A stretch of DNA of 64,000 nucleotides from Parabacteroides sp. PH5-46 (GTDB lineage Bacteria; Bacteroidota; Bacteroidia; Bacteroidales; Tannerellaceae), in assembly GCF_029892785.1 (NCBI RefSeq), contig NZ_JARXXA010000001.1, forward strand, positions 124,001 to 188,000. Reading direction: 5' to 3'. This document shows positions 49,481 to 64,000 of the stretch, piece after piece. A program made the translations under genes and the position numbers. The notes under the pieces are model-generated. The model had not been told where the DNA came from. It saw only the letters and a program-made list of their open reading frames with translations, and made no database searches. Numbering within the stretch: position 1 is the stretch's first letter; each line of letters starts with the position of its first letter.

Positions 49481-51037
49481 ATGATAAAAGAACTACAATT
49501 ACGGATTCTGCCCGAGCAGGCAGCCAATGAACAGTCACTGAAAGAAGTGATTCAACGGGAAACCGGGACATCTCTTTCGGAGATTAAAGCCATCCGGGTA
49601 TTAAAACGCTCTATAGACGCGCGCCAACGGACGGTATTTGTCAATCTGAAAGTCCGCGTCTTTATCAACGAAGAGCCGGATGAGCAGGAGTATCAAACGG
49701 TTGACTACAAGGATGTATCCGGTGGAAAAGCGGTAATTATCGTAGGAGCCGGTCCGGGAGGGCTTTTTGCCGCGCTACGCCTGATTGAGCTGGGCTTTCG
49801 CCCTATCGTGATCGAACGGGGCAAAAACGTGCGCGAGCGAAAGAAAGATATTGCCCTTATCAGCCGGGAACACATGGTAAACAGCGAATCAAACTATAGT
49901 TTTGGCGAAGGAGGAGCCGGAGCATATTCGGACGGAAAGCTCTATACACGAAGCAAAAAGCGGGGCTCTGTTGAGAAGATACTGAATGTATTTTGTCAAC
50001 ATGGAGCCAGCCCTATGATCCTTTCAGACGCACATCCGCATATCGGGACAGACAAGTTGCCGGCCGTGATTGAGAATATGCGCAACCGTATTATCCAATG
50101 CGGCGGCGAGGTTCATTTTGAAACCCGGATGGATACTTTCATCCTGAAGGGAGATGAGATAAAAGGGGTTGAAACCAACATAGGAAAGTCCTTTCACGGA
50201 CCGGTTATCCTGGCTACCGGACATTCGGCACGAGACGTTTACTACTACCTGCATCAACAACAGATACCCATTGAGGCAAAGGGTATAGCAGTGGGCGTTC
50301 GTTTGGAGCATCCGCAGGAGTTGATAGACCAAATTCAGTATCATTCTAAAGAAGGGAGAGGGGAATTCCTTCCCGCTGCCGAGTATAGTTTTGCTACACA
50401 GGTGAATGGGAGAGGGGTTTACTCCTTTTGTATGTGTCCGGGAGGCTTTGTTGTTCCGGCTGCAAGCGCTCCTAAACAAGTGGTGGTGAATGGTATGTCG
50501 CCTGCCAACCGAAATTCGCGCTGGGCCAACTCAGGTATGGTAGTTGAGGTGCATCCCGAAGATTTTCCTGAGTTTGCTCCGCATAAAGAATTAGCACTGA
50601 TGAAGTTTCAGGAGCAGATGGAAGAACAAGCCTGGCTGAATGGCGGTATGAAGCAAACTGCTCCGGCACAGCGGATGGACGATTTTGTAAACCGGAAAAA
50701 CTCTTTCGACCTGCCGGAATCTTCTTATACGCCGGGGCTATTGGCTGCTCCTCTGCACTTCTGCTTACCGGAGTTTATCAGTAGCCGCCTGAAAGAAGGC
50801 TTTCGACACTTCGGAAAGACCTCCCGAGGCTTCCTGACGCGTGAGGCCGTCCTGATAGGTGTAGAAACACGCACCTCTTCCCCCGTCCGCATACTACGCG
50901 ACCGCGAAACCTATCAGCATATTACACTAAAAGGCCTCTTCCCTTGCGGCGAAGGAGCCGGATACGCCGGAGGCATTGTCTCCGCAGCTATAGACGGAGA
51001 GCGATGTGCAGAGGCGGTAGCAAGTTTAATGGCTTAA
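49481..51037 (+). CDS. NAD(P)/FAD-dependent oxidoreductase
   Basis: The 518-residue flavoprotein has an N-terminal region of about 80 residues (LRILPEQAANEQSLKEVIQRETG), then a dinucleotide-binding motif AVIIVGAGPGGLFAALRLIELGFRPIVIERG (about 86-116), FGEGGAGAYSDGKL, the VILATGHSARD segment and a C-terminal FAD-contact GEGAGYAGGIVSAAIDG. The family is widespread and conserved in Bacteroidota and Firmicutes. The substrate is unknown. It is probably co-transcribed with radA. There is no signal peptide, so it is cytosolic. Confidence 0.9.
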   Translation: MIKELQLRILPEQAANEQSLKEVIQRETGTSLSEIKAIRVLKRSIDARQRTVFVNLKVRVFINEEPDEQEYQTVDYKDVSGGKAVIIVGAGPGGLFAALRLIELGFRPIVIERGKNVRERKKDIALISREHMVNSESNYSFGEGGAGAYSDGKLYTRSKKRGSVEKILNVFCQHGASPMILSDAHPHIGTDKLPAVIENMRNRIIQCGGEVHFETRMDTFILKGDEIKGVETNIGKSFHGPVILATGHSARDVYYYLHQQQIPIEAKGIAVGVRLEHPQELIDQIQYHSKEGRGEFLPAAEYSFATQVNGRGVYSFCMCPGGFVVPAASAPKQVVVNGMSPANRNSRWANSGMVVEVHPEDFPEFAPHKELALMKFQEQMEEQAWLNGGMKQTAPAQRMDDFVNRKNSFDLPESSYTPGLLAAPLHFCLPEFISSRLKEGFRHFGKTSRGFLTREAVLIGVETRTSSPVRILRDRETYQHITLKGLFPCGEGAGYAGGIVSAAIDGERCAEAVASLMA

Positions 51038-51086
51038 TGGACTTAATAGACTCAATGACTGAACAACTGAATAATAGGTGAAGTAG

Positions 51087-51734
51087 ATGGAAGAGATTAG
51101 TTTTCAATTTTCAATTTTCAATTTTCAATTAATCGCCAGCTTCTTGATGCTGGCGATTGCTCTGACGCTTATGCCGGGGCCTGATATCTTATTTGTTATT
51201 ACGCAAAGTATCCGTCAGGGCAAGAAGGCGGGGATTGTTTTTGCTTTGGGCTTGTGTGCGGGTTTGATCTTTCATATTGCAGCTATTACCTTAGGGGTGT
51301 CTGCTCTGATCAAGAGTTCGCCAACGGCCTTTCTTGTGTTGAAGGTAGCGGGGGCAACTTACCTTTTCTATCTGGGGATAAAGGTCTTCCTTAGCCGGAA
51401 CGAATCGTCCTTTGTCATAGAAGAAGGCAAGAAGGAAGAAGGCAATTTGTTCCGTAAAGGTGTTCTGATGAATATACTGAATCCGAAAGTGATCCTCTTT
51501 TTTCTGTCTTTCTTCCCGAGTTTTGTAAAGGTTGAGGCGGGGTATCCGGCTTTGCAGATGTGTTTTCTGGGATTGCTGTTTATTATCCAGGCATTTGTTA
51601 TATTCTCGCTTGTGGCTGTTCTGGCTTCGCGGCTGACTAATCTATTGATGAAGAACCCTAAGTCAGCCTTTTGGGTGAATATCATTACTGCTATTATCTA
51701 TTTTATAATAGGAATTAGCATTCTGTTTGTGTAG
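51087..51734 (+). CDS. LysE-family amino-acid exporter
   Basis: The protein has 215 residues from the ATG at 51087, with about six membrane helices and the family motif LTLMPGPDILFVITQSIRQGKKAG near the first helix, plus FLVLKVAGATYLFYLGIKVF and LMNILNPKVILFFLSFFPSF. LysE/RhtB proteins export amino acids or homoserine lactones. The first 15 codons are read from the heptamer microsatellite TTTTCAA and give the odd sequence FQFSIFNFQ. The next ATG, at 51147, would cut into the first membrane helix, so the true start is uncertain. Confidence 0.88.
   Translation: MEEISFQFSIFNFQLIASFLMLAIALTLMPGPDILFVITQSIRQGKKAGIVFALGLCAGLIFHIAAITLGVSALIKSSPTAFLVLKVAGATYLFYLGIKVFLSRNESSFVIEEGKKEEGNLFRKGVLMNILNPKVILFFLSFFPSFVKVEAGYPALQMCFLGLLFIIQAFVIFSLVAVLASRLTNLLMKNPKSAFWVNIITAIIYFIIGISILFV
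51101..51130. repeat. Heptamer microsatellite (TTTTCAA)n within the LysE coding start
   Basis: About 4.3 copies of a 7 bp unit are present, the complement of the TTGAAAA repeat at 23021-23050. A 7 bp unit is not a multiple of three, so gain or loss of one copy would shift the reading frame. Confidence 0.85.
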
Positions 51735-51784
51735 TATCCGCTTTTTTCTATCTTTACGGCGAAGAACAATTAAATACATTCATT

Positions 51785-51991
51785 ATGAGATTTTTCCTGG
51801 GCGTTTTGGTGACTGCTATTGTGTTGACAGGAGCTATCCTAACGGTATTAGCTTTATGGGGAATCCAACCGATCTCCTGGACGATTGTCTGGAAATCGGG
51901 CATGACTATTCTGATCGTATTCGGAACCTTTATTCTGGCTTATCTGTGTTATATTATATTCTTTAAAAACTACAGAAGGAAAGATAAATAG
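51785..51991 (+). CDS. Small two-helix membrane protein
   Basis: The 68-residue protein has two hydrophobic helices (about 4-25 and 36-60) and a basic tail NYRRKDK, so both ends probably face the cytosol. I do not recognise a family. It starts 50 bp after the LysE gene, with TATCTTTA, one base off the -7 consensus, between them. It converges with the next gene with no room for a terminator (1 bp between stops). Confidence 0.65.
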   Translation: MRFFLGVLVTAIVLTGAILTVLALWGIQPISWTIVWKSGMTILIVFGTFILAYLCYIIFFKNYRRKDK

Positions 51992-51992
51992 T

Positions 51993-52385
51993 TTAGCCTT
52001 CCAGTTGCAGCTTTAGTTCTTCCAGCATCTGAATGCGTTCGAGGGAGAATGTGATGTCGTGCAACTGGATATACTCCAACATCTCTTTCGCTTTCGTCCG
52101 TATATCCCTTTGCTTATCAGGGTAAAGGTAAGCTTCTTCTACCAGAAGCTTAGCAGTAATCTCCATACGCTGCAATCCTCCACTATCTTCCTCGTCCAAA
52201 GCCTGGCGAATATCCTTTAGAGAAGCCTCCATAATAAACTCCCGGTCAATCTTCAGCGAGTTATACACCCCTTGCACCAATTGCGGAATCTTACGCGCCG
52301 CATCCGTATTCCGCTGACTGATAATCTGAGTAATTACCTTCGCCAGCTCCTCTATCTGCACTAATATAAAGTCTCTTTTTAGCAT
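51993..52385 (-). CDS. Conserved helical protein, possibly DUF6483-like
   Basis: From the ATG at 52385 the protein has 130 residues. A longer frame to 52424 would overlap the upstream gene. It is fully helical and starts MLKRDFILVQIEELAKVITQI, which recalls the start of DUF6483 proteins, and it ends ITFSLERIQMLEELKLQLEG. The function is unknown. It lies 10 bp downstream of the TPR-MORN gene, so it may be read through from the GTPase operon. Its codon use and base content look more like the core genes, which suggests it is an older neighbour rather than part of that system. Confidence 0.65.
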   Translation of the reverse strand: MLKRDFILVQIEELAKVITQIISQRNTDAARKIPQLVQGVYNSLKIDREFIMEASLKDIRQALDEEDSGGLQRMEITAKLLVEEAYLYPDKQRDIRTKAKEMLEYIQLHDITFSLERIQMLEELKLQLEG

Positions 52386-52395
52386 ATATTGGGTG

Positions 52396-53547
52396 TTATT
52401 TCCTCTTACTATAACTATCTCCAATCCAATAACCCGTTATTATACTTCCGTCTGATTTTATCTCCATTCCATGTCCGGCTCTTTTACCATCTTCCCATTG
52501 CCCGTACCACATATTTTCTTTACTCCAGAAATAAAGACCTTTGCCGTGAGCTTTACCATCTTTTGTTTGGCCAAGATACGTATCATCGCCATATTTTATT
52601 ATTTCAAACTTGTGAGAGGAAATATTACTTGTAGAAGGGTAATCATCAAGAGGCATACTATTCGCAAAACTTCCATAATAAATCACTTTTCCCGTTTCAT
52701 CATAACAAAAACCAGCACCTTTTCTTCTGTCATTACTCCATCCACCGACATAAAATTTACAATCTATACAATTTGGAATGAAGTATCCATCCGGCACTAT
52801 ATAAATGCCAGTTTCAGATCTATGGTTATTTCGGAATTCTCCTACATAAATACTTCCGTCTGCCCAAGTGTAAATACCCATGCCATTACGTTGCGTACTA
52901 AGTACTTCTCCTAAATAATCTCCGTTATCAAAAGATTGGGTCGGATATAAATTTGTTTTCCGGTTTATTAAACGTCTCACATCTGTCAGGTCTAAGGGGA
53001 AGGTTATATGTCTCTTGCATCTTTGTATCCAGACATCAGCACCAGAACAGTCGTTGTTTGCTGCATATTCAAAATAGGTTAATGCTATACTATATTCTCC
53101 TCTGTCGTAGTGAAACCCTCCTTTATGCATTGCGTTTTCACATAGCATTTCATTTTCTTTTTTTTCTATTCTTTTTATCCAATCGTCAGCTTCAGTGCAA
53201 CCTGACTCACTGGCACTTTTAAAAAATGCTTTAGCCTCTTCATAATTACTTGAATTATATTTTTCCTCTCCCTTTTGCATTAAGATAGTACAAGGAGATG
53301 ATACAGTTGGTGGATTGGGTATTACTACTTTAGTTTCCTTTATGCGTTTATCACATGCGTTTACCCATGATTGAAAATCAATATCATTACAGTTTTTAGT
53401 TCCTTCAATAAAAAAATCTCTTGCTTTTGAATAATTACCTGTATTATAAGCTTTCTTTCCATCCTCAAGCAGGCGTTCGCAAACCTGTGAAAAAGCATAG
53501 TTTTCTATTGATAAAAAAACTGCAAATATTAAAAATATTCTTTTCAT
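52396..53547 (-). CDS. Exported TPR-like and MORN-repeat protein (last gene of the GTPase operon)
   Basis: The 383-residue protein has a signal peptide (about 1-20, ending YAFSQ). Three TPR-like repeats follow at about 22-68, 86-132 and 135-181. Each has the pattern C...G...Y..G/S.Y..A..FF/Y followed by C and a final D/Q-x-W, so each repeat carries paired cysteines that could form disulfides in the periplasm. The C-terminal half has MORN-type repeats (GDYLGEVLSTQRNGMGIYTW, YVGEFRNN, TYLGQTKDGKAHGKGLYFW, WYGQWEDGKRAGHG). MORN repeats often bind lipids or proteins. It ends the operon of eight closely spaced genes, and its role there is probably structural. Confidence 0.78.
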   Translation of the reverse strand: MKRIFLIFAVFLSIENYAFSQVCERLLEDGKKAYNTGNYSKARDFFIEGTKNCNDIDFQSWVNACDKRIKETKVVIPNPPTVSSPCTILMQKGEEKYNSSNYEEAKAFFKSASESGCTEADDWIKRIEKKENEMLCENAMHKGGFHYDRGEYSIALTYFEYAANNDCSGADVWIQRCKRHITFPLDLTDVRRLINRKTNLYPTQSFDNGDYLGEVLSTQRNGMGIYTWADGSIYVGEFRNNHRSETGIYIVPDGYFIPNCIDCKFYVGGWSNDRRKGAGFCYDETGKVIYYGSFANSMPLDDYPSTSNISSHKFEIIKYGDDTYLGQTKDGKAHGKGLYFWSKENMWYGQWEDGKRAGHGMEIKSDGSIITGYWIGDSYSKRK

Positions 53548-53554
53548 AAGAAAT

Positions 53555-54673
53555 CTATTTTTTCAATTCTATATCTTGTTTTCTTTTTAACATGTTCTGA
53601 TCATCCGGACGCATTGCTAATGCTTTATTGCAATAGCCCAAAGCTTCATTGAAATATTCCTTGTTTTGCAGGTTTATGGCTGCGTTATAAAAATCTTGTG
53701 TGTTCTTTCGATATGTTTTATACTCTACTACTTTATTTACACATTCTTGACAAAGATGCTTTTTGTTGTTCTTAAATGCCCGCTCAACACTTCCTTCATG
53801 AACGTTACTATTATTATCACTCAATCTGTTGCAATTATGGAATAAATGATAATCCGATATAGGGTGATTCCAATATATATTTTCCAGAGCAATCGAATCT
53901 CTTACTAGGTTGGTATGTGTCAGAATTTCTTTCTGTAAAGTGACCCGTTTGTTAAAGGCGAACAAACCAATAGTACAACCAAACACAACAAGGCATAAAA
54001 ACAAGACAACTTTATATTGTTTCTTTTGGGCTACAAGTTTACGGTATTTTTTCTGTAACTCTTGTTTTTCTGCGTACAACTCAGTAAGTAATTTGTGCGT
54101 ACGTTCTAATTCAGACAATGTTTTTTCATTATTAGAAATATGCACAATATCATATTCAGCCATTGCTGCAAGAATATCGCTACCTGTTTCTTTTACCGAA
54201 ATAGTTTTTATACCATTACCAATTTTAAATGAGGGGGAGATAGCTATAAAATCACGATTGAATTCAGTATCAATATTGCTCTTGAAAAATAATTTGATAT
54301 ACTCAATTTCAGCCTGTTTTTCGGAAAATTTATTTATAGTATATAAGCACTTTCCTTTATCAAACCTTAATAATTCACCTTTCATTAAAACATCGTCAAA
54401 GGCTTTATCAAAGAGTGAAAATAGCTTTTGAGGATTCTGACAATAAACACCATTGAATACTAAACAAAAGCCAAGATAATAGTTTGTTTTTTCCTGCAAT
54501 CTACGCATATAGGCATAAAAAATCAACTGCCCCTTACGACAAATGGAAAGTTGCGATTCGGCTGTGTTATTTAGTGCGAACTCTTTCCATTCAACACTGT
54601 TGCTGTCGGCTGGGTATTGATTGTAGCCGTTAGGTGTACCGTATATGTAAAAGCTGAAGTTCATATTGGTCAA
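53555..54673 (-). CDS. Single-pass membrane protein with shared N-terminal adaptor-like domain (paralog C)
   Basis: The protein has 372 residues, or 369 from the second ATG at 54664 (MNFSFYIYGTPNG). The N-terminal 175 residues resemble those of the genes at 56301 and 58715: MNFxFxIxGxP start, YxYxR, then FCLVFNGVYCQNPQKLFSLFDKAFDDVL. A coiled coil (about 184-218) is followed by one membrane helix (222-241). The C-terminal part, predicted periplasmic, has a possible zinc site (HNC ... HLCQEC) and a TPR-like end (EYFNEALGYCNKALAMRPDD). No known family is recognised. Gaps to neighbours are 7 and 11 bp. Confidence 0.7.
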   Translation of the reverse strand: MTNMNFSFYIYGTPNGYNQYPADSNSVEWKEFALNNTAESQLSICRKGQLIFYAYMRRLQEKTNYYLGFCLVFNGVYCQNPQKLFSLFDKAFDDVLMKGELLRFDKGKCLYTINKFSEKQAEIEYIKLFFKSNIDTEFNRDFIAISPSFKIGNGIKTISVKETGSDILAAMAEYDIVHISNNEKTLSELERTHKLLTELYAEKQELQKKYRKLVAQKKQYKVVLFLCLVVFGCTIGLFAFNKRVTLQKEILTHTNLVRDSIALENIYWNHPISDYHLFHNCNRLSDNNSNVHEGSVERAFKNNKKHLCQECVNKVVEYKTYRKNTQDFYNAAINLQNKEYFNEALGYCNKALAMRPDDQNMLKRKQDIELKK

Positions 54674-54684
54674 TTAGATAAAAC

Positions 54685-56295
54685 TCAATTAATTTTAAGG
54701 TATTCCTTTTTATTACCAAGAAAATCCATCACAAGAAGTGTGTTGTTTTCAATAGTGAGAATATAATAATTCCCCATTTTATATGCAAGTTCTCGTTCTT
54801 CACTTTCGCTCATTTTTAATACGTCATTTACACTATTTGTTAAATACATTTTCCAATTATTTACTTGTGTATCATAAAAATACTTATACATATAATTGAT
54901 TTCACTGCTTCCCATTCCAAAATAATTGACAATCTTTACTTGATTATCAATTTGAAATTCCCATATTGTTTTTGCAACACAGATATCACAAGCATTTGCA
55001 TTCTCAATTTTCCATTTTGTACCAACCAACTCATTTGTCTGTATGGATTTTTCTTCTTCTTTTCGTAGGCATAGTCTCTGTGCTTCACGTATCATGTCAA
55101 AATAATCTAATGACTGAATTACTGGTTGAAAAGAATTAACAGGTGTAGTGTTTCTGATTATTTGTAATATATCTTGAGCGTTTAAACAATCATATTCAGT
55201 TGTGAGTTTATCAATCCAACCGAGGAGTTTAGGGGCAGCAAAAGAGGTTCCGGGATGATCACAATCAGAGATGTCTATGGTAGTGGAAATGGTATTTTTT
55301 CTTATTGTATTATTGCTATATCTTATGGAGGTATTGAGATCAAGAGCATTTACCAAAACTAAATGTCGTTTCAATACTTTCATACTCTGATTATCTAATT
55401 TATTCAAAATAAGTTCATCTAAATTATGAACACCTTCATTGCCGGATGCCTGAGTAAGAATGAAGTTATATTTCCCACTATTTTCTATTTTTTTAATGCA
55501 AGTAGCAAGAGATGTTAAATTCTTAAAATATTCTTTTGCATACGATTTTTGTTTTCGATTTCCGACATTCACATACTGAATAGTCTCACAATATTTATCA
55601 CGTCCTAAACTAGCCATACTTATCGACCTATTTATGAGCACTAACTCATCGTTATCTACACTTTCCATAACCTGTTGAATTCTTTTACATAAAATATTTG
55701 TAAATAACTCTCCCCAAGATGGTCCACCGTCAATATTATATATAGATTGCGTATATTGTGATGACGAAAACTTTTCAAAGGTCTTTCTAACCTCTTCTCC
55801 ATGATTTCCTTTGAAACATTTCTGTTCGTAGAATCCGTCTATTATATAAACCGAAGCCTCATAGTTTCGAGTATTTAAAAATACATATTCAACCATTGAA
55901 TTAGTTCTCATTTTTTTGATAAAACTATTTTCACTTCCGACTTCAACTTCTATCAAATAATAGTCAAATTTTGGCATTTGCTCGATAATCCTACCGCCGT
56001 GTTCTTCTATTATATAAGTTGCTTCGCTAGTTGAAGTGCCGTCTTTAAAATACATCAACACATGTCCTTCTACAGCTTCAATATCATAGCTCTCGTAGTT
56101 TTCGGTATAGATGATGTTTCTTACAGTTGGATAATTTTCTTCGAAAAAGATATTTTCGTATTCTTCTTTCTCCATATACCCCGCATCTACATAGTCAGCC
56201 CACGAAATATCTGCCTGTTTTGATGAGCAACTGTTACAGCCAGTCAAAGAAAAGCAAGCTAATGCAATAGTGATTATATACAGGATTTTTTTCAT
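54685..56295 (-). CDS. Subtilisin-like (S8) lipoprotein protease
   Basis: The 536-residue protein has a lipoprotein signal (FSLTGC, acylation at C20). An I9-propeptide-like domain lies at about 77-140 (GHVLMYFKDGTS, IIEEHGGRIIEQMPKFDYYLIEV). The S8 core follows: D153 in YIIDGF, H165 in GNHGEEV, N286 in QASGNEG and S351 in PGTSFAAPKLLGW. These match the catalytic Asp, His, oxyanion Asn and Ser, so it may be active despite low overall similarity. A C-terminal beta domain (from about 430, LVGTKWKIE) is lipocalin-like. It should sit in the periplasm or on the outer membrane. It lies between two adaptor-like genes. Confidence 0.82.
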   Translation of the reverse strand: MKKILYIITIALACFSLTGCNSCSSKQADISWADYVDAGYMEKEEYENIFFEENYPTVRNIIYTENYESYDIEAVEGHVLMYFKDGTSTSEATYIIEEHGGRIIEQMPKFDYYLIEVEVGSENSFIKKMRTNSMVEYVFLNTRNYEASVYIIDGFYEQKCFKGNHGEEVRKTFEKFSSSQYTQSIYNIDGGPSWGELFTNILCKRIQQVMESVDNDELVLINRSISMASLGRDKYCETIQYVNVGNRKQKSYAKEYFKNLTSLATCIKKIENSGKYNFILTQASGNEGVHNLDELILNKLDNQSMKVLKRHLVLVNALDLNTSIRYSNNTIRKNTISTTIDISDCDHPGTSFAAPKLLGWIDKLTTEYDCLNAQDILQIIRNTTPVNSFQPVIQSLDYFDMIREAQRLCLRKEEEKSIQTNELVGTKWKIENANACDICVAKTIWEFQIDNQVKIVNYFGMGSSEINYMYKYFYDTQVNNWKMYLTNSVNDVLKMSESEERELAYKMGNYYILTIENNTLLVMDFLGNKKEYLKIN

Positions 56296-56300
56296 GAGAT

Positions 56301-57944
56301 TTATCGAATACTTGGCTCTATATTTCTAGGCTCTTTTTCTTTTAATTCCTTTGCTTTGTGTTTTTGACTATAAGAAACCGGACAGCCAACCTTATTGTTT
56401 ATAATCATATCACAAAACACGCGCAATGTCTGAAGTTCATTTAAACTAATTCTTCTTTTGGTAGTTAAATCATATTCAAGCGTTTGCAACAACTCATCTA
56501 CTGTTCTTTTTGCACCATACCCCGGTATATTAACATAGCATCTTTGTGTTATTTCCCTTTTAGAAGTACTATCATTTTTTTTATTAAATTCATGTTTTTT
56601 TTCATCTAATACCATTTTATATAGTGCCATTTTATTACTCGGGTCTAATTCTAAGATATATTCCAAATATTTCTTTTTATTTTCAATAGGTATATCTTTG
56701 TCTACTTCTTCAAAATAATAGTCGATGGTTCCCTGTTTGTATTCCTCAATAATATTGCTATAGTCATCCGCATTACCATATCCCTTTTCTGAAATAAGGA
56801 GTAATTGCTTGACAGCCTCATCATAGCCGGCTATTTTGGGGGTATTTCCAATACCGCCTTTGTTAAACTCTGTTCCGGCTTTTGTTTTCAGCATATCAAT
56901 GGCTGTTTGTTTCGCATGCCGGATTTTATCTTGAGCATTATTAGCAGCTACGTCTAATGTTGTGGCTATTTCGTATAGCTTTATTGCTTCATCAATATTG
57001 TTTAATCCTAGTGGATTAGCTGATAGCAACGAATCGCTACGTTTTAATAAAGTAGTGTATTGTTTGTGATTTTTGTCTTGCCAAGGCTGAAAAATAAAAA
57101 ATCCGCTCATAAGTAGTACCAATACTGTTGCCAATCCAATGATTTTTAATTTATGCTTATGCCAAAGAAGGATAGATATAGGCGGAGGATTTACAGTAGG
57201 TGGGGAAACTGTAACGCTTTTTGAAGCATTTAATTCTTTTCGAATATCCCAAAGAGCATCATTCAGTTTACTTAACTGCGTTTGAATATTATTCAGCTTT
57301 TTATTTTTTTCTATTAGATTATCCAATTCAGCTATTGCTTCAGGAGAGAAAATAATTTCTTCACTGTTTTTATATTCGGGAGAAATAGAAACATGCGAAT
57401 ATTCACGCAGTGCCTCTAAAAACGCAGTGTTTCCTACTTTGCTATTCAGTTTTATACTGGCATAGCTCGGTGTAAAAGAAGAATTCAATGGCAAAATATC
57501 ATCCGCAAAATATTTTTTCAGATTGTTAATTATGTTACTTTCGATAAGTTTTACTTCACCATTTGCTTCTGCAAAAGTACGTACAAGGTATTTTGCCTGT
57601 GCTTTCGGATCATCACTAATTGTTGTAAGCAATTTTCCGTTTTTCAAGATGACATCTTTATAAACCGTATCGAAAAGTTCAAAAAGGTTTTCTATATCTC
57701 GACAATATGCATTTTCGAACATAACAGACATTCCAAACCAAGAGTTATCGTGTCCATCAGATGTTATAAAATTATATCGCAGATACGAATACGAAACCCA
57801 ACCATTCTCCATACGATGAATAACCAATTTCGTATTTTCCCTACTTCCGTTGTCGAATGTTAGAAAATGTTTTTTTTCATCTTCATTCCCCTGATGTAAA
57901 TCAAACACATGAGGGATACCAAAAATTTTAAACACAAAATTCAT
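56301..57944 (-). CDS. Single-pass membrane protein with shared N-terminal domain and TPR-like C-terminus (paralog B)
   Basis: The 547-residue protein has no signal peptide. The N-terminal domain of about 190 residues begins MNFVFKIFGIPHVFDLHQG and contains YSYLRYNF, DNSWFGMSVMFENAYCRDIENLFELFD and FLEALREYSHVSISPEYK. A coiled coil (about 205-240), a Pro-rich linker, a membrane helix (about 266-286) and a TPR-like C-terminal domain follow. It is a clear paralog of the gene at 58715, and a 125 bp stretch is identical in both (56644-56768). Topology suggests the N-terminal domain is cytosolic and the C-terminal domain periplasmic. Its function is unknown. Confidence 0.75.
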   Translation of the reverse strand: MNFVFKIFGIPHVFDLHQGNEDEKKHFLTFDNGSRENTKLVIHRMENGWVSYSYLRYNFITSDGHDNSWFGMSVMFENAYCRDIENLFELFDTVYKDVILKNGKLLTTISDDPKAQAKYLVRTFAEANGEVKLIESNIINNLKKYFADDILPLNSSFTPSYASIKLNSKVGNTAFLEALREYSHVSISPEYKNSEEIIFSPEAIAELDNLIEKNKKLNNIQTQLSKLNDALWDIRKELNASKSVTVSPPTVNPPPISILLWHKHKLKIIGLATVLVLLMSGFFIFQPWQDKNHKQYTTLLKRSDSLLSANPLGLNNIDEAIKLYEIATTLDVAANNAQDKIRHAKQTAIDMLKTKAGTEFNKGGIGNTPKIAGYDEAVKQLLLISEKGYGNADDYSNIIEEYKQGTIDYYFEEVDKDIPIENKKKYLEYILELDPSNKMALYKMVLDEKKHEFNKKNDSTSKREITQRCYVNIPGYGAKRTVDELLQTLEYDLTTKRRISLNELQTLRVFCDMIINNKVGCPVSYSQKHKAKELKEKEPRNIEPSIR

Positions 57945-57975
57945 TATTCATTGTTGTTTTTCAATGCTTATTCGT

Positions 57976-58704
57976 TTACTCGTCGCTTATTTCATTAGGA
58001 TAAATTTGATTATAAATAGTCCTATACTTATTTGTTAGGGTTTGTTCGTAGAATTGTTGTTGTTCAGGTGACAAAATGGATTTATCCATTTCGTCAATTT
58101 CAATCATTATTTTATCTGCATTAAGTAAATCTTTTTTTGCTGATTGAATTAAAAAATCCTTTGTTTCCTCCGTTTTAGTTGAAGAATTTTGTACAATATT
58201 AGATATATTTTCTTTTGAAATTTTAATTTCTATTTGTGATAAAATATTGTTGACAGACTGAATATTTTTGATTAAAAAATAGTGGTTTTGGTGACATAAG
58301 GATGTTTTCCCTATTTCAAATATTTTAAAATCTTCAATGAAAATAAAAACATCACGTCTGCCTAAAAATTCATAAATTTCGAGTGAAGCAAGACGTTTTT
58401 TTAAAGTTTCATTATCTGTATACTTAGATAACAATTCCTCTTTTAGATGAAAAATGATATTATCCTGCTCTGCTATTGACAACTCTAAAGAATCAACTCG
58501 TTGTTTATCTTTGAACCTTGTATTTTCCTCTAGCGCATTTCTACGTTGTATAATAGATTGTTCTAACGATTCGATTTTTCTAAAAACAGCCACCAAAGAA
58601 GTATCAACCGTATTAATGGGTGGAAGTTGACCCTTGGCTCCAACAATTGAAACAAAGAGAGCCAACAAACATAAGATGTTTTTTTTTGAGTTATTTATAT
58701 TCAT
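57976..58704 (-). CDS. Exported coiled-coil protein of the GTPase operon
   Basis: The 242-residue protein has a signal peptide (about 1-26, NILCLLALFVSIVGAKGQ). A coiled coil follows at about 40-110 (RKIESLEQSIIQRRNALEENTRF, SIAEQDNIIFHLKEELLSKY), and then a mixed C-terminal part. I recognise no domain. It sits between the two long paralogs (gaps of 10 and 31 bp) and probably acts in the periplasm as a partner of their C-terminal domains. Confidence 0.65.
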   Translation of the reverse strand: MNINNSKKNILCLLALFVSIVGAKGQLPPINTVDTSLVAVFRKIESLEQSIIQRRNALEENTRFKDKQRVDSLELSIAEQDNIIFHLKEELLSKYTDNETLKKRLASLEIYEFLGRRDVFIFIEDFKIFEIGKTSLCHQNHYFLIKNIQSVNNILSQIEIKISKENISNIVQNSSTKTEETKDFLIQSAKKDLLNADKIMIEIDEMDKSILSPEQQQFYEQTLTNKYRTIYNQIYPNEISDE

Positions 58705-58714
58705 TTTTTGGAAT

Positions 58715-60532
58715 TTATCGAGTAGTTGGTATTTTTGCTTTTAAATTCGTTGCTGTTGTTTTTTGATTTTCAGAAACCGTACAGCCAACCCTATTGTCTA
58801 TAATCATTTGACAATACGAACGTAATGTTTCAAGTTCTTTTGAAGTAACATTTCTTTTAGTAGTTAAATCATCCTCAATCGTTTTCAAAAATTCATCTAC
58901 TGTTTTTTTTGCACTATATCCCAATATTTTAACATAGCATTCATTTGTCGTCTTAGAACGATTGTTGGTAGTGTGCGAAGAAAGAGAGGAGTTTAAATTG
59001 TTCAACTTATTCTTTGCTTTTTCATTAGTTGAATCTAATTCTAAGATATATTCCAAATATTTCTTTTTATTTTCAATAGGTATATCTTTGTCTACTTCTT
59101 CAAAATAATAGTCGATGGTTCCCTGTTTGTATTCCTCAATAATATTGCTATAGTCATCTGTGTCACTATAACCCTTTTTTGAGATAATCTGCAATTGCTT
59201 TACAGCCTCATTATAACCATCTATTTTGGGGGTACTCCCAATGCCGCCTTTACAGAACTCCCTTTCTGCTACTGTTTTTAATGTATCAATAGCCGTCTGC
59301 TTTGCGTGCTTTATTCTACTATTGGCTTTACTATTGTTTATATTTAGCGCAACGGCACTATCATACTTAACTATTGCATTATCAATATTTTTCAAATTAA
59401 ATGGTACAGATTGCAATAAATCATCACCTGCTTTTAACAATCCTTCATATTGTGCGTTTGAATGAGGATAAAGCCACCACAGCAAGCCCGCTAAAAACAT
59501 AATGCCTGCAACACTCCAAATCTTTTTTTTATGTTTGCCATATATGTCTTTCCAGCATGGGAATGGTATAGTTTCGTTTCTAGTTTCAGTAATTTCCTCA
59601 TCACCTATTTCTTTCTCTCCACTATTATTCGTATCCAAATCTTCTATTGGTGGTGTGGCACTAGTTGAGTTCTCTCTTTCTGACTTATAAACAGCTTTAA
59701 TCAATGTATCTACTCGTTCTTTGAGTGCAAATAAAGCATCGTTTTGCTCATGCAATTCAAGTTGAAGTTGCAAATAAGGTTTTATGCTATCTATACCATT
59801 TTTTATTTGATTAGAGACACCTTCAACATCTCTTTTAATATCACTGCCTCCAACTGCATCAGCAAACAAAGTGTCAATTTTTTTTCCTGCCGCTGCTATT
59901 GTTTCATTTAATTCTGTTATTGCTTCCTGTGAGAGACTTTCAGTATCATTCTCTTTATACTCAGGTGAAATGGAAATCCATGAATATTCACGTAATGCCT
60001 TCAAAAAAGCAGGATTCCCCTGTTTATTATTCAATCTAAGAAGCAGATTGGGATTCCCCTGTTTGAAAGAACTGTCTATTGTGTGAATATCGTCAACAAA
60101 TTGAGATAATAGATTTTTGCATATAACATTTTCTATACGCTTTACTTCACTTTCAGCATCCGCAAACTTTTGAATAAGATATTTTGCCTGTATATTGAGA
60201 TTGTCGTTAACTTCTTCAAGCAAAATTTTGTTTTGCAGAATGGTTACGTATGCCGATTCAAAAAGGTGGTATAAACTTTCTACATCATTGCAATACTCTT
60301 TATCGAATATGATGGACATTCCAAAGAAAGAATTATCCCGCCCACCACTCGTTTTAAAGTTATATCGAAGATAAGAATATGAAACTTTCCCACTCGCCAT
60401 ACGATGAATAGTAAACTTTGTATTTTCCTTACTTCCGTTGTAAAATGATTGGAAGTAATTTATGTCATGTTCACTACCTTGATATAAGTCAAATATATAA
60501 GGTGTCCCGAAAATTTTAAATACGAAATTCAT
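58715..60532 (-). CDS. Single-pass membrane protein with shared N-terminal domain and TPR-like C-terminus (paralog A)
   Basis: This is the longest paralog, with 605 residues. The N-terminal domain (1-190) begins MNFVFKIFGTPYIFDLYQG and has YSYLRYNF, GRDNSFFGMSIIFDKEYCNDVESLYHLFESAY and FLKALREYSWISISPEYK. A longer central coiled coil (about 205-285), an acidic low-complexity linker (285-322), a membrane helix (about 338-355) and a C-terminal TPR-like domain follow (QYEGLLKAGDDLLQ, IDNAIVKYDSAVALNINN). It shares an identical 125 bp tract with paralog B (59034-59158 here). It lies 23 bp downstream of the GTPase gene, so the N-terminal domain is a plausible GTPase partner. Confidence 0.75.
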   Translation of the reverse strand: MNFVFKIFGTPYIFDLYQGSEHDINYFQSFYNGSKENTKFTIHRMASGKVSYSYLRYNFKTSGGRDNSFFGMSIIFDKEYCNDVESLYHLFESAYVTILQNKILLEEVNDNLNIQAKYLIQKFADAESEVKRIENVICKNLLSQFVDDIHTIDSSFKQGNPNLLLRLNNKQGNPAFLKALREYSWISISPEYKENDTESLSQEAITELNETIAAAGKKIDTLFADAVGGSDIKRDVEGVSNQIKNGIDSIKPYLQLQLELHEQNDALFALKERVDTLIKAVYKSERENSTSATPPIEDLDTNNSGEKEIGDEEITETRNETIPFPCWKDIYGKHKKKIWSVAGIMFLAGLLWWLYPHSNAQYEGLLKAGDDLLQSVPFNLKNIDNAIVKYDSAVALNINNSKANSRIKHAKQTAIDTLKTVAEREFCKGGIGSTPKIDGYNEAVKQLQIISKKGYSDTDDYSNIIEEYKQGTIDYYFEEVDKDIPIENKKKYLEYILELDSTNEKAKNKLNNLNSSLSSHTTNNRSKTTNECYVKILGYSAKKTVDEFLKTIEDDLTTKRNVTSKELETLRSYCQMIIDNRVGCTVSENQKTTATNLKAKIPTTR

Positions 60533-60555
60533 TTTTCACATTTAATTTTTATCAA

Positions 60556-61470
60556 TCACCACCCACCTTTTACCGTCTTTATAATAGCCTTCCATAATTC
60601 GGCAGGGTACCTATCATTGCTTGGCGTATATGACTGTCCACTACCATCGGCAGTATCGTTGAACAATCCGGCAGAGAAAATAACAAAATCAAAATTGTAT
60701 TTACGCCATAATTTTGTTATCGGATTTTGATTCATATATTTTGAAAAAATCCCTTGGTATTGATTTTTTATGTTTTTGAAGAACTGTTCTTTATTGGGGC
60801 GACCAGCATCAAACAATGCAGGGTGCATATCAGCCTTATGACAGGTAAAGATAACCCTATCTTTGGGTTCTATCTGACTTTGCATCTTGATAATTTTATT
60901 AGCATAGTTCAATCTATCTTGCAAATCCTCCCAATTACTTTCTACAATAAACATCCAAGTTTTGGGATTATCAATTGTGCAAATAGTATTGATATAACGC
61001 GGAAAAGGCTCATTGGGAAATTGACGACTAAAATAATGCTCACCGGGTGCTTCTAAAATTTGACAAATCGGTTCCCCGTATTTATTCATTACTTTTATAA
61101 GCATAAAATTTAATATGCTTGTAGCACCTGCAGAATAATCACTATTAACAGCCTCGTCAAACGTATCACACATCTCTTTATAATGCCCCGAATTACTCGG
61201 GCGAAAACTCCTATCCGGTTCAACTTTATAACCATTTTTTCTTAACCAGCGAGTAAGGCGTATCAAAGTCATTGTTTTACCTGATGAACCCGCCCCAAAT
61301 AGAATTATTACAGGTGCAGGATCAGAAATTACTACATTTATTTTATTAGGATCTCGTTCTTCTTCTACGGTTAAGCCCGTATTTTGAAAAGAGGAAACAG
61401 CAGACGGCAAAGTAGCTATATCTAAATCCTCGTTAGTGTTATCTGTTAAATCAAATGTTTTTTTAGCCAT
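60556..61470 (-). CDS. P-loop GTPase, TRAFAC-like, of the envelope system
   Basis: The 304-residue protein has no signal peptide. G1/Walker A is GAGSSGKT (59-66). G3 appears as EAPG (140-143) in place of DxxG, G4 as HKAD (211-214) in place of NKxD, and G5 as SAG (266-268). These motifs in this order indicate a small regulatory GTPase with unusual G3 and G4, so GTP specificity is inferred, not certain. The first 45 residues look disordered and acidic. The closest idea is a member of the conflict-system GTPase families (such as double-GTPase types), but I cannot assign one. It lies between the four-helix protein and adaptor paralog A. Confidence 0.75.
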   Translation of the reverse strand: MAKKTFDLTDNTNEDLDIATLPSAVSSFQNTGLTVEEERDPNKINVVISDPAPVIILFGAGSSGKTMTLIRLTRWLRKNGYKVEPDRSFRPSNSGHYKEMCDTFDEAVNSDYSAGATSILNFMLIKVMNKYGEPICQILEAPGEHYFSRQFPNEPFPRYINTICTIDNPKTWMFIVESNWEDLQDRLNYANKIIKMQSQIEPKDRVIFTCHKADMHPALFDAGRPNKEQFFKNIKNQYQGIFSKYMNQNPITKLWRKYNFDFVIFSAGLFNDTADGSGQSYTPSNDRYPAELWKAIIKTVKGGW

Positions 61471-61499
61471 GATAAATTTTAATTTATAAATAGAATTAA

Positions 61500-62576
61500 T
61501 TACTGTTCCCTTTTTGCAAATGCAATATCAAAGAATATAAATCCTGCAATATCAACAAGTGCGCCAAGCATTACCCAAAAGATAAATCCTCTGCCTGCAT
61601 ATTTTCCAGAAAAAAAATCTTTCCAAACATCAACAACACTGCGCATACGTTCTGTTTCAGAAATTCCAGAAAAATGTTTTTTATCTTCTTGTGATAATTT
61701 AATTTTGTCAGGGTGGGATTTTTCAAATTCCTTTATCAAAATATCACTGTAATTATTGATAATTTTATATGCTTGCGATAATATAATACTTGTTCTAGCA
61801 GTTGGTTCTTCGTTATTGTTTGGGTCTGCATGCATTTTATTCTGAACTCTTTGAATTTCAGTTATTAATTTTCTAATATCATCTTGATTTAATCCTTTGT
61901 TTATATTTTCTAATCTTGTATCATAAACAGTTATCGAGTGGGAAAGTTGCTTGTCATCTACTATACTTCTCATTGCTTTAATAAGCTCTTGCCGACCGCT
62001 GTGTGTATTGTTACGCAACTGCAGGCGTTGCAGCGGCCCTAATTCTCTTTCAATGTCAATAATACGTGCTTCAGCACGATCCGCCCAACCTTCTAATCCG
62101 GGATTATTAATTTCTCCGGCGAAATTTGCAAAAAGCCCATTAATTTTATTCTTAAAATCTGCTTTTTCTTGTTCTATAATGCTTTTAGCTATTCCTCCAT
62201 TCGAAAGGCTTTGCAATTTGTCTTTCGTGTCAGTTAAATCTTGTACCAAAACGTCTTTTATTGCCGAACGATAAAAAAACGTATGCGTATTGGTTGGTAA
62301 ACTAAAACATAACCAAAATATAAGCAAGAGAATAATCCCACCAATTAATCGCCAACCGCGATTGTCAACCCTTATTCGTTGATTAAAACTATCCACAATC
62401 AATTTTGTACCGATTGATGAAACTACAAAGAATATAACAGTTACAGCCCAAAAGAAAACAACAGGCCATGAGGGTAATAACAAATGTAAAGATTCAACTG
62501 TAGCCCAGCAACTCACACCCATTAATATTACAAATGCAGAAAATGCAAAGATTTTTAGAAATTTGTTCTGTTCCAT
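61500..62576 (-). CDS. Four-helix membrane protein with large periplasmic helical domain (first gene of the operon)
   Basis: The 358-residue protein has membrane helices at about 8-28, 36-58, 77-95 and 330-352. The loop NQRIRVDNRGWR after helix 2 and the tail KREQ are basic, so both ends should be cytosolic. The 230-residue middle region (100-325, helical, acidic and lysine-rich, with PLQRLQLRNNTHSGRQELIKAMRSIV) should then be periplasmic. No known family is recognised. It heads an operon of eight genes and may act as the sensor or channel-like component. Confidence 0.7.
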   Translation of the reverse strand: MEQNKFLKIFAFSAFVILMGVSCWATVESLHLLLPSWPVVFFWAVTVIFFVVSSIGTKLIVDSFNQRIRVDNRGWRLIGGIILLLIFWLCFSLPTNTHTFFYRSAIKDVLVQDLTDTKDKLQSLSNGGIAKSIIEQEKADFKNKINGLFANFAGEINNPGLEGWADRAEARIIDIERELGPLQRLQLRNNTHSGRQELIKAMRSIVDDKQLSHSITVYDTRLENINKGLNQDDIRKLITEIQRVQNKMHADPNNNEEPTARTSIILSQAYKIINNYSDILIKEFEKSHPDKIKLSQEDKKHFSGISETERMRSVVDVWKDFFSGKYAGRGFIFWVMLGALVDIAGFIFFDIAFAKREQ

Positions 62577-62920
62577 AAAGTATTTAGGTTTAATATTTGT
62601 TTTACTCCCACTCTTATGAAAGGGTCAATGTAATTTTCTATATACTTATCAAAATCTCGATTTATTACACATCAGTTCAGTTTCTATTGCTTCGAGATAC
62701 TGTAATGTTAAAATTACTAATTCGCAAATATACAAAAGTATTTGTAATATGAAAATCTTAATATAAAATAAAAATAAAATTTACATTTTACGTTATTTGT
62801 GTGAAAAATCAATGATGTTTTCCTATTTGTATAAACAATAAAAAGATTTTGTGAAGTTTATTGATCTCTATTATGATTATGGTTTAATTTATAGTATTAT
62901 GTAGAATAAAACTAGTTTTT
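62577..62920. other. AT-rich region upstream of the GTPase operon
   Basis: No gene is seen in these 344 bases, which are very AT-rich from about 62640 to 62920. The promoter candidate for the operon is at 62725-62732. The region separates the operon from the more GC-rich PPIase gene, and the base composition changes sharply at about 62930, which may mark one edge of an acquired segment. No direct repeats, integrase or tRNA lie at the boundary. Confidence 0.6.
62725..62732 (-). promoter_or_regulatory. Candidate -7 box for the GTPase operon
   Basis: The minus-strand TATATTTG matches the consensus and would give a leader of about 140 bases. A second match, TACTTTTG, lies directly upstream at 62733-62740. 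Neither has a convincing -33 box. Confidence 0.55.
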
Positions 62921-63730
62921 TTATTCTACAGTTACACTAATAATACGGATATCTTTTTTCGGGCGATCGTAGGTGTCTTTGGGTTGGGAGGCGATCTTGT
63001 CTAATATGTCGAAGCCTTCGGTTAGTTCGCCGAAGATGGTGTATTGGGCGTCTAAGTGGTGGGTGCCTCCGATGGTGGTGTAGGCTTCGCGTTGCTCATC
63101 GGTGAAGAGGAGGTGTCCGGGGGTGTTGCGGATCACGGAGTCTACCTTTGCGTTGATGTCTACTACGTATTTGTTGTATTCGGCCGGGGCGGCTGTTTTG
63201 AGGGAGTCCATCAGTTCTTTAACAGGCGTGTAGTATTGGGCCATGGCTTTCCGCTTGATGGGGAGGTTGGCGGCCAGTTGCAAGGTATCTAACTCTCCGG
63301 GGCGATACACCTTGCCTTGTACGATGTAGAACTGAGACATATCTGATTTCTTCTGTGGGTTGATGTCATCTCCCTGACGAGGAGCGGCTAGTGTCCCTTT
63401 CTTATGGAAATACTGTTCACGGAATTCGGGCATGATTTCGGCGCTTCTGTCTCCCGATCCTACACGAGCCCCTTCCGGTGCATTTCGCGAATCGGGAGCT
63501 CCTCCCTGTATCATGAAGTTTTTGATCACCCGGGTGAAGAGTGTCCCGTTAAATTCACCTTTGGTTGCCCTATTGATGAAGGTTTTCGTATGGTTCGGCA
63601 CATCCGGATACAGGCGGGCTTTCATCGTCCCCACATTGGTCGTGATCACAACGATTTTATCCTGTGCTTTAGCAGATAAGCAAAGCATACACCCCAGCAA
63701 TATAATAGCAAAACGATACATATTCTTCAT
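62921..63730 (-). CDS. Exported cyclophilin-type peptidylprolyl isomerase
   Basis: The 269-residue protein has a signal peptide (about 1-22, ending LSAKAQ) and a cyclophilin domain with TNVGTMKARLYPDVPNHTKTFI, the core FTRVIKNFMIQGGAPDSR, SQFYIVQGK and HLDAQYTIFGELTEGFDILDKIA. It catalyses cis-trans proline isomerisation in the periplasm. An insertion of about 70 residues (YRPGELDTLQLAAN to YTTIGGTH) splits the usual domain, a form common in Bacteroidales. Its start overlaps the stop of the upstream phosphatase-family gene by 4 bp. Confidence 0.93.
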   Translation of the reverse strand: MKNMYRFAIILLGCMLCLSAKAQDKIVVITTNVGTMKARLYPDVPNHTKTFINRATKGEFNGTLFTRVIKNFMIQGGAPDSRNAPEGARVGSGDRSAEIMPEFREQYFHKKGTLAAPRQGDDINPQKKSDMSQFYIVQGKVYRPGELDTLQLAANLPIKRKAMAQYYTPVKELMDSLKTAAPAEYNKYVVDINAKVDSVIRNTPGHLLFTDEQREAYTTIGGTHHLDAQYTIFGELTEGFDILDKIASQPKDTYDRPKKDIRIISVTVE

Positions 63731-64000
63731 TTAAAAACAATGTCGGCTACTACCGGTTGATGATCAGAGGGGTAGTAGGGAGTATTATTCCTTTGGTCGG
63801 TCAATACACCATATTTGTTTACTTCAATTGAGCTACTTACGAAAATGTAATCGATCCGGTATTTATTCGAGATCGGATGGGTAAACCTAGAGTTGAAAGT
63901 ACCTTCCGGACCGTAGGGGGGCAACTTGGATATCTTTCGTGAGTCTTGCAAGAAGGAAGAAAGTGTTTTGATTTGCTCGGTATCGGGCGTAGAGTTGAAA
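63727..64000 (-). CDS. Endonuclease/exonuclease/phosphatase-family protein, 5' end cut by the window
   Basis: The frame is open to the window edge (the apparent start at 63951 is an internal TTG), so only the last 90 residues are seen. They include FNSTPDTEQIKTL, GPEGTFNSRF, YRIDYIFVS and the terminal SDHQPVVADIVF, which are the C-terminal motifs of the EEP fold: Asn of FNxxP, RIDYIF, and the catalytic D-H of SDHQP. This type includes exonuclease III-like and secreted phosphodiesterase proteins. It overlaps the PPIase start by 4 bp. Confidence 0.87.
   Translation of the reverse strand, partial: FNSTPDTEQIKTLSSFLQDSRKISKLPPYGPEGTFNSRFTHPISNKYRIDYIFVSSSIEVNKYGVLTDQRNNTPYYPSDHQPVVADIVFK

What the first reader, a model, noticed from the sequence alone, without database searches (positions are those of the whole stretch)
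52396..62576. Undescribed-looking eight-gene GTPase/transmembrane-adaptor/protease operon
Seen: eight same-strand genes with 5-31 bp gaps. They encode a four-helix membrane protein, a P-loop GTPase, three single-pass proteins sharing one N-terminal domain, an exported coiled-coil protein, a lipoprotein subtilase and an exported TPR-MORN protein. The block is AT-rich against its flanks. Known: GTPases placed next to adaptor domains, TPR proteins and proteases are typical of bacterial conflict and signalling islands. Inferred: a cytosolic GTPase switch acts through membrane adaptors on a periplasmic protease module, as an envelope-stress or defence (phage/bacteriocin) system.
Basis: partly seen in the sequence, partly recalled or inferred. 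Interest (0 to 1): 0.9.

Follow-up and report, generated by a model that had tools for sequence, protein, structure and literature searches.

The report
Membrane GTPase–longin–protease operon
A bacterium carries an inserted eight-gene island that seems to wire a switch protein, shaped like our cells' Rag and Arf GTPases, through membrane-anchored partners with a predicted "longin" domain to a protein-cutting enzyme outside the inner membrane; its purpose is not yet shown.

Summary
In detail: eight same-strand genes (52396-62576), short gaps, GC 0.328 against 0.430 for the rest of the window. It is an accessory insertion: in 3 genomes of the genus the two flanking genes adjoin. The same core, in the same order (four-helix membrane protein, GTPase, adaptor A, protease slot, adaptor B), recurs in 7 other loci, GTPases 32-42% identical to the window's. 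The protease is swapped: subtilase here, a retropepsin-like lipoprotein in 6, none in 1. New here: the shared adaptor N-domain is predicted (pLDDT 85.6) to be a longin domain, nearest to a Lokiarchaeal longin, Lst4 and the folliculin, C9orf72 and GATOR1 complexes. The GTPase model has a Rag/Arf/G-alpha-like fold. A remote tie to DO-GTPases rests on a bridging lineage and a shared motif; GAP1 and GASH, which define DO systems, were not found. Best reading: an inner-membrane G-protein signalling module in which a longin pair couples a periplasmic sensor to a variable envelope protease, probably for conflict or defence. Parts and layout are well supported; pairing, signalling and role are inferred.

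The parts
61500..62576 (-). Four-helix membrane protein; 235-aa charged loop between TM3 and TM4 (207-236 aa in the eight), invariant PTNTHT at the end of TM3; candidate periplasmic sensor
   Evidence: topology in 8 of 8 homologues; alignment A5
60556..61470 (-). Ras-like (TRAFAC-type) GTPase with Rag/Arf-like predicted fold; P-loop FGAGSSGKT, switch motif LEAPGE, HKAD where the other 7 of 8 have NKxD
58715..60532 (-). Adaptor A1: N-terminal longin-type domain, linker, one weakly scoring TM helix (about 338-356), C-terminal tail
   Evidence: model of residues 1-200
57976..58704 (-). Exported coiled-coil protein; homologue in the corresponding place in L008 (24% identity, E 3e-10)
56301..57944 (-). 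Adaptor A2: tandem duplicate of A1 (DNA stretches 72-83% identical), TM 266-284
54685..56295 (-). Lipoprotein subtilase: lipobox LTGC at 17-20, fervidolysin-type prodomain, motifs giving D153, H165, N286, S351; stands where relatives have a retropepsin-like protease
53555..54664 (-). Adaptor B: longin-type N-domain, TM 219-237 with more basic residues on the N side, C-tail
52396..53547 (-). Exported MORN protein with TPR-like N half (accessory)
62577..62920 (-). Leader of the operon; TATATTTG at 62732-62725 fits a Bacteroidetes-type -7 box (motif recalled, not tested)
62901..62929 (-). Palindrome overlapping the stop codon of the upstream peptidyl-prolyl isomerase gene: possible terminator before the island (read by eye; not listed by the terminator scan)

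Best explanation
An accessory inner-membrane G-protein signalling module. Shown or well predicted: a 4TM protein with a large loop on the side opposite its basic loop; a Ras-like GTPase; two kinds of single-pass proteins (A and B) with a longin-type N-domain before the TM helix; and an exported lipoprotein protease of exchangeable family. Inferred: A and B pair through cytosolic longin domains, as eukaryotic longin pairs do, and form the platform that binds the GTPase and sets its nucleotide state; the 4TM protein senses a periplasmic event; the change passes through the adaptor TM helices to their periplasmic tails, which dock, restrain or release the protease; the protease then cuts an envelope or incoming target. 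The most likely role is conflict or defence, with envelope surveillance next.
For: 4TM-GTPase-A-B in the same order in 8 of 8 loci (L005's adaptor B frame is cut short). The GTPase query and the 4TM profile hit the same 4 of 123 family genomes. Adaptor N-domain model pLDDT 85.6, pTM 0.85; VIA-align Z 10.1 to a Lokiarchaeal longin, 10.0 to Lst4 longin, 8.6 FLCN complex, 8.3 C9orf72-SMCR8, 8.1 GATOR1; of the first 36 rows, 33 are entries of longin-type proteins or complexes, judged from titles and recall, and 3 are TagF. GTPase model: Z 14.1 RagD, 13.8 RagC, 12.6 an Asgard Arf. Topology: 8 of 8 4TM proteins have a 207-236 aa loop after TM3 and a short basic loop before it. Protease place: retropepsin-like lipoprotein in 6 of 8, D[TS]G[CA]S in 6 of 6 (PF13975 5.7e-11 for the one scanned, L006); subtilase in the window; none in L007. 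Island lies between two genes that adjoin in 3 of 3 same-genus genomes with the close PPIase orthologue. Neighbour genes: I scanned 8 hand-picked non-core genes from 4 relatives against PADLOC; HEC-01A and HEC-01B lie next to L019's module (0.3 kb) and a PDC-S04 Fic gene 2.9 kb from L018's adaptor B. Two adaptor-only loci carry a GH25 lysozyme gene next door, which points to the envelope.
Against: No interaction, GTP binding or proteolysis is shown; A-B pairing and GTPase contact were not modelled. The longin assignment is structural only: Foldseek gave no hit below 1e-3 and sequence searches found no longin family (best Pfam hint C9orf72-like, E 0.025, in 1 of 17). The GTPase model is middling (pLDDT 60.5, two sequences) and its best Foldseek hits are atlastin, GPN-loop Npa3 and a tubulin-cofactor chain, before Gtr. 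The window's GTPase has HKAD. Two of 7 adaptor B proteins (L018, L019) have more basic residues after the TM helix, against an N-in orientation. L007 lacks a protease gene. The PADLOC neighbours come from a hand-picked sample without a background rate; the operon itself matched nothing in PADLOC better than E 0.02. The GTPase was not found in phage or plasmid collections or IMG/VR.
Confidence: 0.55

Rival explanations
1. It is a derived branch of the DO-GTPase/GAP1 conflict systems: adaptors A and B are GAP1 counterparts (GAP1-N itself longin-like), and the proteases are its variable effectors, as caspases are in plasmid-borne DO systems.
For: The bridging GTPase L036, beside a 4TM gene homologous to ours, passes the DO-GTPase1 cut-off (34.8 bits against 27). 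The pattern [DE]x[APSG]GE is in 14 of 14 DO-GTPases and 8 of 8 module GTPases, but 1 of 3 bridging ones. An HMM of the three bridging GTPases puts 3 DO-GTPase1s, 1 DO-GTPase2 and 5 of 8 module GTPases ahead of every other ORF of 397. Variable peptidase effectors are typical of DO systems (passages of PMC7159879; caspase genes in plasmid loci).
Against: In that same HMM ranking L005 and L018 come after unrelated ORFs and the window's own GTPase is 44th (E 7.9). HMMs of DO-GTPase1 and of the module GTPases rank SRP GTPases or other P-loop proteins above most of the other set. Window GTPase: no DO-GTPase match at E<=1; 1 of 8 members at 0.13. hhalign with DO1 (84%) is beaten by the control Ffh (95%). 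Adaptor N against GAP1-N1: 0.7%. No GASH, no second GTPase.
Confidence: 0.28
2. An envelope-maintenance or surface-remodelling regulator without a conflict role: the GTPase gates maturation or turnover of surface proteins or peptidoglycan.
For: The exported proteins face the envelope; adaptor-only relatives pair with a GH25 lysozyme; L019's adaptor B tail carries BACON domains; no match of the GTPase in phages or plasmids.
Against: Patchy (4 of 123 family genomes), inserted and AT-rich, protease swapped between unrelated families.
Confidence: 0.3
3. A secretion-system regulator related to type VI TagF, whose fold the adaptor N-domain also matches.
For: TagF is the first Foldseek hit (E 2.4e-3) and aligns over the most residues of the rows shown (158, Z 7.7).
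Against: Longins score higher (Z 10.1 and 10.0). I noticed no type VI gene in the eight loci but did not search for any.
Confidence: 0.07

Closest known systems
DO-GTPase/GAP1 GTPase-centric conflict systems (Kaur et al. 2020, PMC7159879)
   Same: GTPase-centred operon with membrane parts and variable peptidase effectors; (D/E)xxGE switch pattern; a bridging GTPase passes Pfam DO-GTPase1
   Different: One GTPase; no GAP1, GASH or FNIII protein found; longin-type single-pass adaptors, a 4TM protein and lipoprotein proteases instead; the window GTPase does not match the DO models
Eukaryotic and Asgard longin proteins that act with Rag, Rab or Arf GTPases (FLCN-FNIP, GATOR1, C9orf72-SMCR8, TRAPP; Lokiarchaeal roadblock-longin)
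   Same: Longin fold (Z 8-10), two kinds of longin protein, partner GTPase with Rag/Arf-like fold
   Different: Bacterial; longin joined to a TM helix; encoded in one operon with the GTPase; paired with an exported protease; no DENN match in Pfam
MglA-MglB roadblock polarity switch
   Same: Bacterial Ras-like GTPase with a regulator of the roadblock/longin class (passages of PMC3521125 and PMC10933270)
   Different: MglB is a roadblock homodimer; no TM adaptors or protease (recalled)
T6SS accessory protein TagF
   Same: Fold match across 158 residues
   Different: A cytoplasmic T6SS repressor acting with Fha (abstract start, PMC5995506); not known with such a GTPase or protease (recalled)
APRc-type bacterial retropepsins
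   Same: Six relatives carry a retropepsin-like protease; its profile matches the ApRick protease 5c9b (E 0.0025), L006's matches PF13975
   Different: Here a lipoprotein encoded between two longin-type adaptors; in the window it is replaced by a subtilase

Membership tests
DO-GTPase/GAP1 system | GTPase matches Pfam DO-GTPase1 or DO-GTPase2 | tested here: not met
   Window GTPase no match at E<=1; 1 of 8 members reaches 0.13. The bridging relative L036 does pass.
DO-GTPase/GAP1 system | Conserved glutamate in the Walker B region | tested here: met
   LExPGE in 8 of 8; (D/E)xxGE pattern in 14 of 14 DO-GTPases compared; feature quoted from PMC7159879. Which glutamate the authors mean was not checked.
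DO-GTPase/GAP1 system | GAP1 protein (GAP1-N/M/C) | tested here: not met
   No GAP1 match for the eight proteins at E<=1; PF20012 not found in G000; adaptor N vs GAP1-N1 hhalign 0.7%. A fold-level relation was not tested.
DO-GTPase/GAP1 system | GASH or FNIII companion | tested here: not met
   No such Pfam match in the eight proteins
Longin domain | Longin fold | tested here: met
   AF2 model pLDDT 85.6; Z 10.1 and 10.0 to longins, 33 of the first 36 rows longin-type by title. A prediction, not a solved structure; Foldseek alone gave nothing below 1e-3.
Longin domain | Sequence membership in a longin family | tested here: not met
   No Pfam longin match; best hint C9orf72-like E 0.025 in 1 of 17; no PDB longin by profile search
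Longin domain | Binds a small GTPase as a dimer | not testable with these tools
   No complex prediction available
Ras-like (TRAFAC) GTPase | P-loop, switch motif, NKxD and fold | tested here: met
   P-loop and LExPGE in 8 of 8, NKxD in 7 of 8 (HKAD in the window); fold Z 14.1 RagD, model pLDDT 60.5
Subtilase (S8) | Catalytic D, H, S with oxyanion N | tested here: met
   D153, H165, N286, S351 in subtilase-like motifs and in order, prodomain 7.9e-8. Pfam S8 domain itself did not match.
Known anti-phage system (PADLOC) | Match to a PADLOC model | tested here: not met
   Only the GTPase matched, at E 0.02 and 0.04

The most novel reading that the evidence does not exclude
A hitherto undescribed class of bacterial transmembrane G-protein signalling: a Rag/Arf-like GTPase and a membrane-anchored longin heterodimer, the same device eukaryotes use at the lysosome and Golgi, encoded as one horizontally spreading operon and controlling exchangeable envelope proteases. 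If GAP1-N of the DO-GTPase systems also proves to be a longin, GTPase-longin pairing would be an old bacterial conflict device.
Probability: 0.35. Interest if true: 0.9.

Novelty: new variant of a known kind. Interest (0 to 1): 0.76.

Why it matters
The passages seen (PMC10933270, PMC3521125) place longin domains in eukaryotes and Asgard archaea and give bacteria roadblock proteins such as MglB. A bacterial operon with two kinds of membrane-anchored longin protein and a Rag/Arf-like GTPase bears on where longin-GTPase signalling came from, offers a small genetic system in which to test it, and would be a route by which a cytosolic GTPase governs a protease outside the inner membrane.

Tried and rejected
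Direct DO-GTPase membership by sequence: hhalign of the module GTPases with DO1 gave 84%, but the Ffh control gave 95% over the P-loop, and the HMM rankings do not separate the sets cleanly; I use only the bridging lineage and the switch pattern. On rechecking the bridging HMM ranked the window's own GTPase 44th, so I lowered the DO-GTPase rival from 0.35 to 0.28. Adaptor N as GAP1-N by sequence: no support (0.7%), although the order of motifs looks alike to my eye; left as a lead. Adaptor of the bridging lineage as a homologue of A/B: not supported by sequence (2.2%), only by position. The GTPase in phage, plasmid and viral-contig collections: not found. Island ends: no tRNA within 29 kb, no clear flanking repeat, no integrase noticed by eye among the ORFs. 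Rfam: nothing in 51000-64000. Sigma-70 promoter and terminator scans: counts close to shuffles. PDB sequence search for the subtilase: none at E<=0.01.

Rows dropped before counting: G412 and G475, short P-loop matches (45 and 31 residues) to another P-loop protein, G867, G737, G794 and G576 (SRP GTPases) and G655 (AAA), judged by eye from the encoded proteins. G719 was kept because of its neighbours. L005's adaptor B frame is short (128 aa). One search counts one TAA in the G069 match; the frame that I used has no inner stop.

Literature: searches for longin with GTPase, roadblock, operon, Bacteroidetes, bacterial defence or TagF, and for GTPase with retropepsin listed no bacterial longin operon; the hits looked like chance word matches. 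The library holds only open-licence PMC papers. Of papers I saw passages of PMC7159879, PMC11237479, PMC3521125 and PMC10933270, otherwise listings.

Limits: structure jobs were restricted to window and L005 sequences, so the GTPase model rests on two sequences and the adaptor model on five. VIA-align re-ranks Foldseek's own candidates; a family not listed is not excluded.
Full report
Observation. The window is 64 kb of a 4.42-Mb, 39-contig genome. GC is 0.328 in the block and 0.430 in the rest of the window; each gene of the block lies between 0.281 and 0.361 while its two neighbours have 0.453 and 0.495.

It is a discrete insertion. Of 18 genomes of the genus searched, 15 have a match to the PPIase that lies upstream of the block; three besides the window's own are close (76-77%). 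In all three the next gene is the orthologue of the small gene at 51993-52385, 11-34 bp on, and two of them then show the LysE-type gene further along. In the window the whole block lies between the PPIase and that small gene. I saw no tRNA, integrase or clear repeat at the ends.

It is a conserved module. A GTPase search hit 4 of 123 family genomes, window included. A profile hit 6 of 393 genomes of the order; two are short P-loop matches that I dropped, leaving the window and three more. A sample of 395 genomes of the phylum gave 7, of which I keep the window and G719. A named Bacteroidales MAG gave one locus, L005. In the 8 module loci the order is 4TM, GTPase, adaptor A, then adaptor B; L005's adaptor B frame is short. 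Pairwise identities within the eight are 30-53% for the GTPase, 24-68% for the 4TM protein, 16-57% for the A-type and 17-44% for the B-type N-domain. The 4TM profile hit the same 4 of 123 family genomes as the GTPase. The adaptor profile hit 6 of 393 order genomes: the 4 GTPase-positive ones plus G331 and G475, which carry a lone adaptor B next to a GH25 lysozyme gene; one of those two lysozymes also has a MORN match below the cut-off (E 3.7e-4), and both show a TM-like stretch by eye.

The protease varies. Between adaptors A and B, 6 of 8 loci have a lipoprotein of the retropepsin-like family with D[TS]G[CA]S in 6 of 6. L006's, the one scanned, matches Pfam gag-asp_proteas at 5.7e-11, and the profile matches the ApRick protease (E 0.0025). 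The window has a lipoprotein subtilase there. L007 has none. The window and L008 also carry a homologous exported coiled-coil gene (24% identity, E 3e-10).

The adaptor N-domain is predicted to be a longin. Sequence searches did not say so, apart from a weak Pfam hint to C9orf72-like proteins (E 0.025, 1 of 17). The AlphaFold2 model of residues 1-200 of adaptor A1, from five sequences, has pLDDT 85.6 and pTM 0.85. VIA-align puts a Lokiarchaeal longin first (Z 10.1, 132 residues, 3.4 A), then Lst4 longin (10.0), the FLCN complex (8.6), a Vamp7 longin entry (8.4), C9orf72-SMCR8 (8.3) and GATOR1 (8.1). Of the first 36 rows 33 are longin-type entries, judged from titles and recall, and 3 are TagF; row 37 is a PAS-type kinase. 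Foldseek alone was weaker (none below 1e-3; TagF 2.4e-3, FLCN complex 6.8e-3, Lst4 1.2e-2 with probability 0.98). The tool's note says unmatched models typically reach a best Z of 7-8, so 10 with so uniform a list is above that level but not overwhelming. A- and B-type N-domains are one family (hhalign 98.7%).

The GTPase. The model is middling (pLDDT 60.5, two sequences). VIA-align gives a tubulin-cofactor chain 14.5, RagD 14.1, RagC 13.8, Gtr 13.3, G-alpha 13.1, an Asgard Arf 12.6; Foldseek's first hits are atlastin, GPN-loop Npa3 and the tubulin-cofactor chain, then Gtr. So a Ras-like GTPase fold is supported, the particular branch is not. P-loop and LExPGE are in 8 of 8; NKxD in 7 of 8, HKAD in the window.

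Tie to DO-GTPases. In a family outside the class, 3 of 86 genomes have the relative found through G719, each with an RHS/YD-repeat gene (named by eye), a 4TM gene, a GTPase and an adaptor-like gene with one TM helix. Their 4TM proteins are homologous to ours (HMM E 5e-9 to 2e-7, next unrelated ORF 0.07; hhalign 92%). One of their GTPases, the one scanned, passes the DO-GTPase1 cut-off (34.8 bits). Their GTPase HMM puts 3 DO-GTPase1s, 1 DO-GTPase2 and 5 of 8 module GTPases before any other of 397 ORFs, but the window's own comes 44th, and HMMs of DO1 or of the module GTPases rank SRP and other P-loop proteins among or above the other set. The tie is therefore suggestive: position, 4TM homology, and the (D/E)xxGE pattern.

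Topology and mechanism. The 4TM proteins have a short basic loop between TM2 and TM3 and a 207-236 aa loop after TM3 (8 of 8), so the large loop should be periplasmic. Of 7 adaptor B proteins measured, 5 have more basic residues before the TM helix than after it, 2 (L018, L019) the reverse; of 8 adaptor A proteins with a called helix, 6 have more before and 2 tie. On balance the longin is inside and the tail outside. From this I infer: 4TM sensor, GTPase switch set by an A-B longin pair, periplasmic tails acting on a lipoprotein protease. Pairing, GTPase contact and signal direction are inferences.

Role. For conflict or defence: patchy, inserted, AT-rich, protease swapping, the possible kinship with DO-GTPase systems (called conflict systems in PMC7159879, passages), HEC-01A/B genes next to L019's module and a PDC-S04 gene near L018's (8 hand-picked neighbour genes from 4 relatives, of which L008's matched a PrimPol model and L017's three matched nothing), and RHS genes beside the bridging version. 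Against: no operon protein has a good PADLOC match, the GTPase was in no phage, plasmid or viral contig searched, and I have no background rate. An envelope role without conflict stays possible; the lysozyme link fits both.

Known or new. The literature searches listed no bacterial longin operon. PMC3521125 and PMC10933270 (passages only) describe longins in eukaryotes and Asgards and roadblock domains in bacteria. I file the system as a new variant of GTPase-centred systems, not a member of the DO-GTPase/GAP1 class, because its defining partners were tested and not found.

Noticed in passing
L036, L042, L043 (genomes G719, G671, G827): A related 4TM-GTPase-adaptor set directly downstream of an RHS/YD-repeat gene (named by eye), 3 of 3 loci, in one genus of another family of the phylum; the RHS C-termini look alike rather than varied.
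   Followed up: partly
L090:8186-10632, L091:5216-7678: Lone adaptor B gene followed by a GH25 lysozyme gene, in two genomes of one genus in which the GTPase profile found no real match.
   Followed up: partly
L037:3497-9685: A canonical DO-GTPase system (GASH, DO-GTPase2, DO-GTPase1, GAP1-N1) whose GAP1 protein also has a phosphorylase-superfamily (PNP_UDP_1) domain.
   Followed up: no
L019:6741-8587; L018:5879-6748: HEC-01A/B candidate defence pair (AAA ATPase and DUF4276) 0.3 kb from L019's adaptor B; a PDC-S04 Fic/Bro-N gene 2.9 kb from L018's adaptor B.
   Followed up: partly
window:39448-45529: Three tandem genes of 665-672 codons with fimbrillin-like or Fib_succ_major matches, some below the cut-offs.
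   Followed up: no
window:23104-25134: Rho factor of 676 aa, with about 260 residues between its N-terminal and RNA-binding domains; strong AT skew (-0.41) at 24001-25000.
   Followed up: no
window:60556-61470 and 56301-60532: The window's GTPase has HKAD where the other seven have NKxD, and among the eight loci only this one has two A-type adaptors.
   Followed up: partly
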